From Bacillus rhizoplanae (GTDB lineage: Bacteria; Bacillota; Bacilli; Bacillales; Bacillaceae_G): a stretch of DNA of 64,000 bases. This document shows, piece by piece, positions 47,117-48,927 of the stretch. The notes below the pieces were generated by a model. It searched no databases. It saw only the letters and a list, made by a program, of their open reading frames with translations, and was not told the origin of the DNA. How positions within the stretch are numbered: the stretch's first letter is position 1; every line of letters starts with the position of its first letter. The stretch lies in the NCBI RefSeq assembly GCF_917563915.1, contig NZ_CAKJTI010000016.1, positions 1-64,000 of the forward strand, written 5' to 3'. Position numbers and translations under genes: made by a program.

Positions 47117-47145
47117 TTGTTAATTTTCTAATAGTATTGTATATT
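47117..47145 (+). promoter_or_regulatory. Sigma-A promoter of the ZTP riboswitch transcript
   Basis: TTGTTA (47117-47122), a 17-base spacer, and TATATT (47140-47145). Transcription would begin about 10 bases before the aptamer. Confidence 0.6.
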
Positions 47146-47162
47146 AAAAAAAGAATTTAATT

Positions 47163-47232
47163 CCCATATGTAACTGGCGCAACATGGATTACCATGAGGG
47201 AGCATATGGATTTATGAGCCGCGCGCCTGGGC
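47163..47232 (+). promoter_or_regulatory. ZTP (pfl) riboswitch aptamer
   Basis: The strings that define this class are present in order: the 5' P1 arm CATATG, then AACTGGCG, the P2 helix CATGG-ATTA-CCATG, GGGAGC with the 3' P1 arm CATATG, a linker, and the CGCGCGCCTGGGCA domain that forms P3 and the pseudoknot. ZTP riboswitches sense the purine intermediate AICAR/ZTP, which rises when 10-formyl-tetrahydrofolate is short, and usually turn on one-carbon or purine genes. Here the downstream gene is an APC permease. Confidence 0.88.
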
Positions 47233-47268
47233 AAGCACTTGATATTTTTATCAAGTGCTTTTTATTTT
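47233..47268 (+). terminator. Riboswitch expression-platform terminator
   Basis: AAGCACTTGAT (47233-47243) pairs with ATCAAGTGCTT (47250-47260) before a T-rich run. The left arm starts at the base after the aptamer core, so ligand binding can compete with the terminator. Confidence 0.88.
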
Positions 47269-47295
47269 TCTATAATAGAAAAGGAGTAGATTGGG

Positions 47296-48927
47296 ATGAA
47301 TTCTATGCACAGGAAGATGGGGACGTTTGCCCTTACTATGACGGGGCTCGGTTCCATGATTGGTTCAGGATGGCTATTTGGAGCTTGGAGAGCTGCAGAA
47401 ATTGCGGGGCCAGCTGCTATATTTTCTTGGATGATTGGTATGGTCGTTATTTTATTTATTGCATTGTCTTATGCAGAACTTGGAGCTATGTTTCCTGAAA
47501 CAGGAGGAATGGTAAAGTATCCGCAATATTCCCACGGTTCATTGGTTGGATTTTTGGCAGGATGGGCCAATTGGATTGCAATTACTTCTACGATTCCAGT
47601 AGAAGCCATTGCTTCAGTTCAATATATGAGTACATGGCCGTGGAAATGGGCTAGTTGGACACATTCGCTTGTACAAGATAATGTATTAACATCTAAAGGA
47701 TTACTCGTTGCATCTGTATTACTTTTCGTATATTTTTTCCTAAACTATTGGACAGTTAACCTTTTTGCAAAGGCAAATTCTTGGATTACGATATTTAAAA
47801 TTATTGTGCCTGGAATTACTGCTGGTGCCTTGTTATTTGTCGGATTTCAAGAAAGTAACTTTACAACTTCACAGGGTATGGCACCATATGGATGGGCAAG
47901 TGTGCTCACGGCAGTTGCTACTTCTGGAATTGTATTTGCTTTTAATGGATTTCAAAGTCCAATCAACATGGCCGGTGAAGCGAATAAGCCGAACCGCTCT
48001 ATTCCAATTGCAGTTATTGGATCAATTTTGATTGCTACAGTTGTATATATTGTACTGCAGGTTGCCTTCATCGGAGCAATAAATCCGGTGGTAATTGCAA
48101 AAGGATGGAATCATTTGAATTTCAATTCTCCGTTTGCTGATTTGGCAATTGCACTCGGAATGAATTGGTTAGTTATTTTACTGTATGTCGATGCGTTTAT
48201 CTCTCCATCTGGGTCTGGAACTACTTATACTGCAACAACAGCTCGTATGGTTTATGGAATGGAGAAAAATGGTTATCTTCCTAAAAAATTAGGTACTTTA
48301 CACCCTGTGTATGGTGTTCCACGTCCAGCTTTAATTTTGAACTTATGTATATGTTTTCTTTTTTTAATATTATTTCGTGGATGGGGCGTTTTAGCTGAAA
48401 TTATTTCAGTTGCCACGTTGATTTCTTACATTATGGGACCAATTGCACTGATGACATTACGGAGTACAGCGGGTCATTTATATCGTCCATTTCGTTTAAA
48501 AGGAGCTAATTTTATTGCTCCGTGTGGATTTGTTTTTGCATCGCTCACTTTGTATTGGGCACGCTGGCCGCTAACAGGCGAGGTATTGTTCATCATGGCA
48601 ATTGGATTACCGATTTATTTTTATTATCAGTATAAAAATAAATGGCGCGGATTTAAAAATCAGTTCCGTTCGAGCATTTGGTTAATTGTATATTTACTAT
48701 GTATGGTAACGATTTCCTATCTTGGAAGTTACAAATTTGGCGGAATGAACATAATACCATATGGTTGGGACATGCTTCTTATTACAGTAATAGCGCTTGT
48801 TTTTTATTTTTGGGGAGTAAGAAGTGGAAGTTATACAGAATACATGATAGAAGCTGAGAAAATTAATGGATGTTTATCAGATCAAGACGATAAGAGTGAA
48901 TTTTCTTCTAAAAGTCAAGCGATGTAA
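47296..48927 (+). CDS. APC-family amino acid permease under ZTP riboswitch control
   Basis: A 543-residue permease with about 14 hydrophobic segments. TGLGSMIGSGWLFGAWRAAEIAGPAA (about 16-41) is the APC substrate-binding loop, and FAFNGFQSPINMAGEANKPNRSIP (about 215) is a second family block. Relatives are annotated as YbaT/aspartate-type transporters. The riboswitch suggests that the substrate feeds one-carbon or purine metabolism, for example a glycine or serine source; this is inference. AAGGAG is 9 bases from the ATG. Confidence 0.87.
   Translation: MNSMHRKMGTFALTMTGLGSMIGSGWLFGAWRAAEIAGPAAIFSWMIGMVVILFIALSYAELGAMFPETGGMVKYPQYSHGSLVGFLAGWANWIAITSTIPVEAIASVQYMSTWPWKWASWTHSLVQDNVLTSKGLLVASVLLFVYFFLNYWTVNLFAKANSWITIFKIIVPGITAGALLFVGFQESNFTTSQGMAPYGWASVLTAVATSGIVFAFNGFQSPINMAGEANKPNRSIPIAVIGSILIATVVYIVLQVAFIGAINPVVIAKGWNHLNFNSPFADLAIALGMNWLVILLYVDAFISPSGSGTTYTATTARMVYGMEKNGYLPKKLGTLHPVYGVPRPALILNLCICFLFLILFRGWGVLAEIISVATLISYIMGPIALMTLRSTAGHLYRPFRLKGANFIAPCGFVFASLTLYWARWPLTGEVLFIMAIGLPIYFYYQYKNKWRGFKNQFRSSIWLIVYLLCMVTISYLGSYKFGGMNIIPYGWDMLLITVIALVFYFWGVRSGSYTEYMIEAEKINGCLSDQDDKSEFSSKSQAM

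What the first reader, a model, noticed from the sequence alone, without database searches (positions are those of the whole stretch)
47117..48927. ZTP riboswitch controls an amino acid permease of unknown substrate
The aptamer strings, P1/P2 arms and terminator arms are all present and in order, so the riboswitch is seen directly. ZTP riboswitches mostly regulate purine and folate enzymes. A transporter as the only target implies that the imported compound relieves one-carbon or purine shortage. The permease therefore becomes a strong candidate for a glycine, serine or related one-carbon donor importer.
Basis: partly seen in the sequence, partly recalled or inferred. Interest (0 to 1): 0.75.

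Follow-up and report, generated by a model that had tools for sequence, protein, structure and literature searches.

The report
ZTP riboswitch before serine/glycine importer
A known RNA sensor for purine and folate stress sits directly in front of a transporter that most likely imports serine and glycine, so this bacterium can probably bring in one-carbon donors when purine synthesis stalls; the parts are known kinds, the pairing is a useful new link.

Summary
Rfam ZMP-ZTP (RF01750) hits 47160-47239 at 58.7 bits (cut-off 39), the only hit in the window, followed by a 12-bp terminator (47233-47260) and a 543-aa APC permease (47296-48927). With the window these form one clade (100/99); the other 55 permeases in the tree lack the ZTP motif upstream.

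The substrate is not wholly unknown. The permease is 73% identical to the protein in the aimA (ybeC) place of a B. subtilis-like genome. Published work has AimA importing serine, glycine, glutamate, asparagine and alanine. Related bacilli carry ZTP mostly before serA, also serC, folD and AICAR formyltransferase. The serine/glycine inference is well supported; transport and ligand response are untested.

Unexpected: in most leaders of this lineage the terminator starts just after helix P3, whereas most leaders of a Bacillota sample reuse the P3/pseudoknot strand. How ligand binding is coupled is open. New member of a known kind.

The parts
47117..47145 (+). probable sigma-A promoter, TTGTTA-17-TATATT
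   Evidence: scan at chance level on its own; -10 region aligned and conserved in 12 relatives
47160..47239 (+). ZMP/ZTP riboswitch aptamer (RF01750). P1 47164-47171/47202-47209, P2 47184-47187/47192-47195, pseudoknot 47176-47179/47224-47227, P3 47218-47220/47230-47232
   Evidence: cmscan 58.7 bits; pair counts. The pseudoknot is assigned from recalled published structures; its four pairs are invariant in the 12 distinct leaders
47233..47269 (+). intrinsic terminator hairpin (47233-47260) and U-tract; starts at the base after P3
   Evidence: compensatory change G-C to A-U at 47235/47258
47279..47286 (+). ribosome-binding site AAAAGGAG, 9 nt before ATG
   Evidence: read from the sequence
47296..48927 (+). 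AimA-type APC amino acid permease, 543 aa
48982..49008 (+). intrinsic terminator-like site after the permease; the gene appears monocistronic

Best explanation
A transcriptional ZTP riboswitch that turns ON a broad-range AimA-type importer. When 10-formyl-THF is short, AICAR nucleotides (ZMP/ZTP) build up and bind the nascent aptamer; terminator formation at 47233-47260 is hindered and the permease is made. The permease brings in small amino acids, above all serine and glycine, which feed 5,10-methylene-THF and then 10-formyl-THF through GlyA, the glycine cleavage system and FolD. Shown here: aptamer, terminator, permease, their conserved linkage, and AimA kinship. Inferred from the family: ligand and ON direction. 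Inferred from homology and regulon: serine/glycine as the relevant cargo. Not explained: how a terminator that merely abuts P3 is blocked.
For: RF01750 hit. Linkage in 12 relatives with the same -10 region, aptamer and terminator, one clade with the window at 100/99. AimA assignment: L128 is 72.7% identical to the window protein over 524 columns and has a convergent GDPD-domain (GlpQ-like) gene downstream, the context 'ybeC>, <glpQ < glpT' printed in PMC8226366. The stretches GLGSMIGSGWLFGAWRAA and SGIVFAFNGFQSPINMAGEA (TM1 and TM6 by recalled APC topology) are identical in the two; YveA is 37% identical and differs in both. AimA imports serine (PMC8226366), glutamate (PMC7857571), asparagine (PMC10882977), glycine and alanine (PMC11005379). 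ZTP regulon of kin: 43 of 58 loci precede serA, 8 the permease, 7 other (the 8 come from genomes chosen for having the permease). Of the 30 loci L058-L087, the best-scoring ones of a family-wide search, 26 are serA. G004 has ZTP sites before serA, AICAR formyltransferase and the permease.
Against: AimA is promiscuous, so serine/glycine as the relevant cargo is a choice. B. subtilis aimA is constitutive (PMC8226366), and the two B. subtilis-like genomes with an aimA-type gene, G355 and G328, have no ZTP hit. The ZTP-linked clade is sister to the clade holding AimA, not inside it, and G398 has both kinds (L115, L184), so function could have diverged. The TM1/TM6 stretches are also largely shared by Alicyclobacillus and Xanthomonas homologues, so they mark the subfamily, not one substrate. 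Of 66 permease-bearing genomes examined have a ZTP site and 12 have it before the permease. P3 and terminator can coexist in the predicted fold, unlike the published invading mechanism. A swap test gave no support for a base-paired extension of P3 overlapping the terminator (274 of 500 swaps as good).
Confidence: 0.76

Rival explanations
1. The riboswitch is real, but the permease mainly imports another AimA substrate (glutamate, asparagine/aspartate or alanine), for example to supply amino groups for purine synthesis, or is a general scavenger.
For: AimA imports glutamate, asparagine and alanine too. Its paralog YveA is an aspartate symporter by recalled annotation.
Against: The identified ZTP targets in kin are mostly serine synthesis and one-carbon genes, none seen for glutamate or aspartate. 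In 5 of the 13 serA loci scanned a glycine riboswitch follows the ZTP aptamer, which ties the regulon to glycine (loci with long leaders were among those picked).
Confidence: 0.15
2. The switch is OFF or not ligand-gated: the terminator forms whether or not the aptamer is occupied.
For: The terminator shares no base with the canonical P3 in the window. One tandem ZTP OFF system before moeA is predicted in PMC9481103.
Against: The zero-base spacing is kept in 50 of 59 leaders by a strict finder, including most serA leaders, where PMC9481103 predicts ON control. Termination that ignores the ligand would not preserve a full aptamer.
Confidence: 0.08

Closest known systems
ZTP (pfl motif, RF01750) riboswitch before the serine-synthesis gene in Bacillus and Oceanobacillus, in tandem with a glycine riboswitch (PMC9481103, passages read)
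   Same: Same aptamer class and serine/glycine/one-carbon logic; the serA leaders fetched here also mostly start the terminator right after P3
   Different: Target is an importer, not an enzyme; no glycine riboswitch in the window leader
C. beijerinckii pfl ZTP riboswitch (PMC10085676, passages read)
   Same: Aptamer class; transcription terminator downstream
   Different: There the invader pairs with the P3 and pseudoknot strand; here the terminator starts after P3 and can reach into GGG only weakly
AimA (YbeC) of B. subtilis
   Same: About 73% identity to the aimA-locus protein of a B. subtilis-like genome; TM1 and TM6 stretches identical
   Different: aimA is expressed constitutively, next to glpQ; the window copy has a ZTP leader and other neighbours
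YveA
   Same: Same broader family
   Different: 37% identity; TM1 and TM6 stretches differ

Membership tests
ZMP-ZTP riboswitch RF01750 | covariance-model score above the gathering score | tested here: met
   58.7 against 39 bits, full-length model
ZMP-ZTP riboswitch RF01750 | conserved core and pseudoknot GGCG/CGCC | tested here: met
   pseudoknot pairs invariant in 12 distinct leaders
ZMP-ZTP riboswitch RF01750 | binds ZMP/ZTP and changes expression | not testable with these tools
   needs in-line probing or transcription assays
ZMP-ZTP riboswitch RF01750 | expression platform that invades P3 and the pseudoknot, as in C. beijerinckii pfl | tested here: not met
   terminator offset 0 here; -12 or -15 in 17 of the 19 Bacillota-sample leaders where one was found (29 examined; 6 without the anchor, 4 without a terminator). 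A platform feature, not class-defining
AimA (YbeC) importer | sequence kinship above that to YveA, the other family member compared | tested here: met
   73% to the aimA-locus protein, 37% to YveA; in one 35-row clade with it at 99/94
AimA (YbeC) importer | strict orthology: same clade and locus as B. subtilis aimA | tested here: not met
   sister clade and other neighbours; a co-family member
AimA (YbeC) importer | imports serine, glycine and others | not testable with these tools
   needs uptake assays
BcaP (NF053761) | equivalog cut-off 690 bits | tested here: not met
   144.7 bits

The most novel reading that the evidence does not exclude
Bacillaceae ZTP riboswitches, this one included, use a distinct expression platform: the terminator's 5' arm starts at the base after P3 and leaves the pseudoknot strand free, so the ligand must act through stacking or steric blocking of the last terminator pairs rather than by blocking strand invasion of the pseudoknot. 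With it the alarmone drives amino acid import, making ZTP a signal for uptake as well as synthesis of one-carbon donors.
Probability: 0.35. Interest if true: 0.6.

Novelty: new member of a known kind. Interest (0 to 1): 0.45.

Why it matters
It gives a testable substrate for a permease family annotated only as 'APC family permease' in the 15 plasmid records listed (of 96), extends the ZTP regulon from making serine to importing it, and points to a platform in which ligand control of a nearly non-overlapping terminator can be studied. Of 29 Bacillota-sample loci, 24 gave a downstream ORF, and in two (L207, L212) it is an MFS transporter, so transporters may be an under-noticed class of ZTP target.

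Tried and rejected
Own-genome search: none is held. NCBIfam: none of the 25 models shown reached its cut-off for the permease (27 matched). The first scan of ZTP downstream genes assumed that loci were oriented and missed minus-strand ones; redone. Extended P3 as antiterminator: no support, own flanks no better than swapped ones (31 distinct flank pairs from 60 leaders). U-tract reaching into P3 with a bulged C: possible in 48 of 59 leaders but neutral or unfavourable in 47 of the 48; only that register was tested, and in 4 of 13 serA leaders the best hairpin does reach 4 nt into GGGC by another register (L062: -21.8 against -20.1 kcal/mol). Other Rfam elements in 31 non-ZTP homologue loci: a T-box, a c-di-GMP-I and a tRNA, none placed to serve the permease. 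Literature: 0 held papers join 'ZTP riboswitch' with 'permease' or ZMP, riboswitch and 'amino acid permease'. Of ten papers with ZTP, riboswitch, serine and transporter I read passages of three; of 66 with 'ZTP riboswitch' (40 listed) passages of PMC7266159, PMC9481103, PMC10085676 and PMC13273304; both papers with AimA, riboswitch and serine in passages. I saw no ZTP-permease link in those. PMC13273304 reports a covariation model of whole ZTP riboswitches in which the platform rearranges the aptamer; whether it covers this lineage I did not see. Kim et al. 2015 is not held, so earlier mention there cannot be excluded. Tree: 67 of 130 loci plus the window were kept; duplicates, L101, L105, L106, L057 and many near-identical Xanthomonas (3 of 27 kept), Companilactobacillus and YveA-like rows were left out.

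Full report
Observation. The Rfam ZMP-ZTP model matches 47160-47239 on the + strand over its full length at 58.7 bits (cut-off 39). It is the only Rfam match above a gathering score in the window. A 12-pair hairpin followed by a U-tract begins at 47233, AAAAGGAG lies at 47279-47286, and a 543-aa permease ORF starts at 47296.

More than chance. In the 13 leaders aligned (12 distinct) 384 cells were counted, 99.0% of them standard pairs; sliding the partners gives 29-56%. P1 shows a C-G/U-A exchange and the terminator shows G-C/A-U and U-A/G-C exchanges; the first two rest on the window alone, and one terminator pair is broken in 4 rows. In the shuffle control 0 of 500 reached the paired percentage, both counts of both-side changes or the covariation score, while 435 of 500 reached the number of further pair types (5 observed, 4.9 shuffled mean), so that measure gives no support. 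In a tree of 68 permeases the 12 and the window form one clade (100/99). None of the other 55 has the string CGCCTGGGC within the upstream stretch looked at, 330 nt where held; L181 has only about 60 nt, but its genome G274 has no ZTP hit. cmscan of 31 non-ZTP homologue loci found no element placed to serve the permease. Of the 66 permease-bearing genomes examined, many of them distant kin such as Xanthomonas and lactobacilli, 25 have a ZTP site and 12 have it before the permease.

What the permease is. NCBIfam gives only sub-threshold matches among the 25 shown; the nearest solved structure by sequence is a bacterial amino acid transporter (5oqt, E 1.5e-27). Locus L128, 72.7% identical, carries a convergent GDPD-domain gene downstream. 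That is the context 'ybeC>, <glpQ < glpT' that PMC8226366 prints for ybeC/aimA (passages). The more distant YveA (L165), with a GH32 gene before it, is 37% identical. The stretches that I take for TM1 and TM6 are identical between the window protein and L128; Alicyclobacillus and Xanthomonas homologues share most of them too. From passages read: AimA is the main serine importer (PMC8226366), a main low-affinity glutamate importer (PMC7857571), imports asparagine (PMC10882977), and glycine, alanine and beta-alanine (PMC11005379). PMC10882977 says that close AimA orthologues are missing in most species; searches show relatives of 70% identity or more in several bacillus groups.

What ZTP switches control nearby. 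Of 58 ZTP loci taken precede serA, 8 the permease and 7 others. 'serA' means kin of the L059 ORF, whose best NCBIfam match is phosphoglycerate dehydrogenase at 257.5 bits, below its cut-off of 454. The 8 permease loci come from genomes that I chose because they have the permease; of the 30 loci L058-L087, the best-scoring ones of a search of 193 genomes, 26 precede serA. The others include serC (L137, above cut-off) and two FolD-like genes (L058, L083, best matches below cut-off). G004 has three ZTP sites, before serA, a stand-alone AICAR formyltransferase (657 bits, cut-off 415) and the permease. Five of the 13 serA loci scanned carry a glycine riboswitch after the ZTP aptamer, the tandem that PMC9481103 describes. 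The regulon is therefore serine/glycine supply and AICAR use, and an importer of serine and glycine fits it.

Mechanism. In a Bacillota sample the terminator's 5' arm is the P3/pseudoknot strand: offset -12 or -15 in 17 of the 19 leaders where a terminator was found, out of 29 examined. That is the invasion described for C. beijerinckii (PMC10085676). In the bacilli studied here the terminator mostly starts at the base after P3: 50 of 59 leaders at offset 0 by a strict finder, the rest at 3 (three), 8 (four, hairpins whose loop exceeds the finder's limit), 27 (one) or not found (one). One search agrees for most: of seven permease leaders five at 0 and two at a distant, spurious hairpin; of 13 serA leaders eight at 0, four at -4 and one at +3; of four others all at 0. 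In the window P3 and terminator coexist in the predicted fold. A test for an extended P3 was negative, and pairing of the U-tract into P3 costs the window leader 0.5 to 1.5 kcal/mol, though some serA leaders do reach 4 nt into GGGC. ON control is inferred from the class and from the sense of its targets, not from the fold.

Verdict. A genuine ZTP riboswitch before an AimA-type importer, most likely of serine and glycine: a new member of known kinds, with an unusual expression platform shared by most leaders of the lineage.

Noticed in passing
L190 (G001:C1:2531500-2535700), ORF 974-1990 on the reverse complement: In Neobacillus PS3-12 an IscB gene (NF040563, 288.6 bits, cut-off 175) sits between a ZTP riboswitch and serA, about 350 nt after the aptamer, so the IscB mRNA may be under ZTP control.
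   Followed up: partly
L207 and L212: ZTP riboswitches before an MFS transporter (L212: NF049980 L-lactate MFS transporter, 376.9 bits, cut-off 320; L207 looks alike by eye); a formate or lactate carrier would suit one-carbon supply.
   Followed up: partly
L101, L105 and L106 (G150): Further permease copies in one genome: L101 and L105 with several in-frame stops, L106 a fragment; apparently decayed duplicates.
   Followed up: no
window 51782-59844: Neighbouring gene group read by eye as aminotransferase, CoA-transferase subunits, a peptidase-like hydrolase, acetyltransferase, with a sigma-54 activator and lysine 2,3-aminomutase (Pfam): looks like lysine or beta-lysine metabolism.
   Followed up: no
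L154 (G134): A ZTP riboswitch before a 3-hydroxyisobutyrate dehydrogenase-like gene (named by eye), an unusual target.
   Followed up: no
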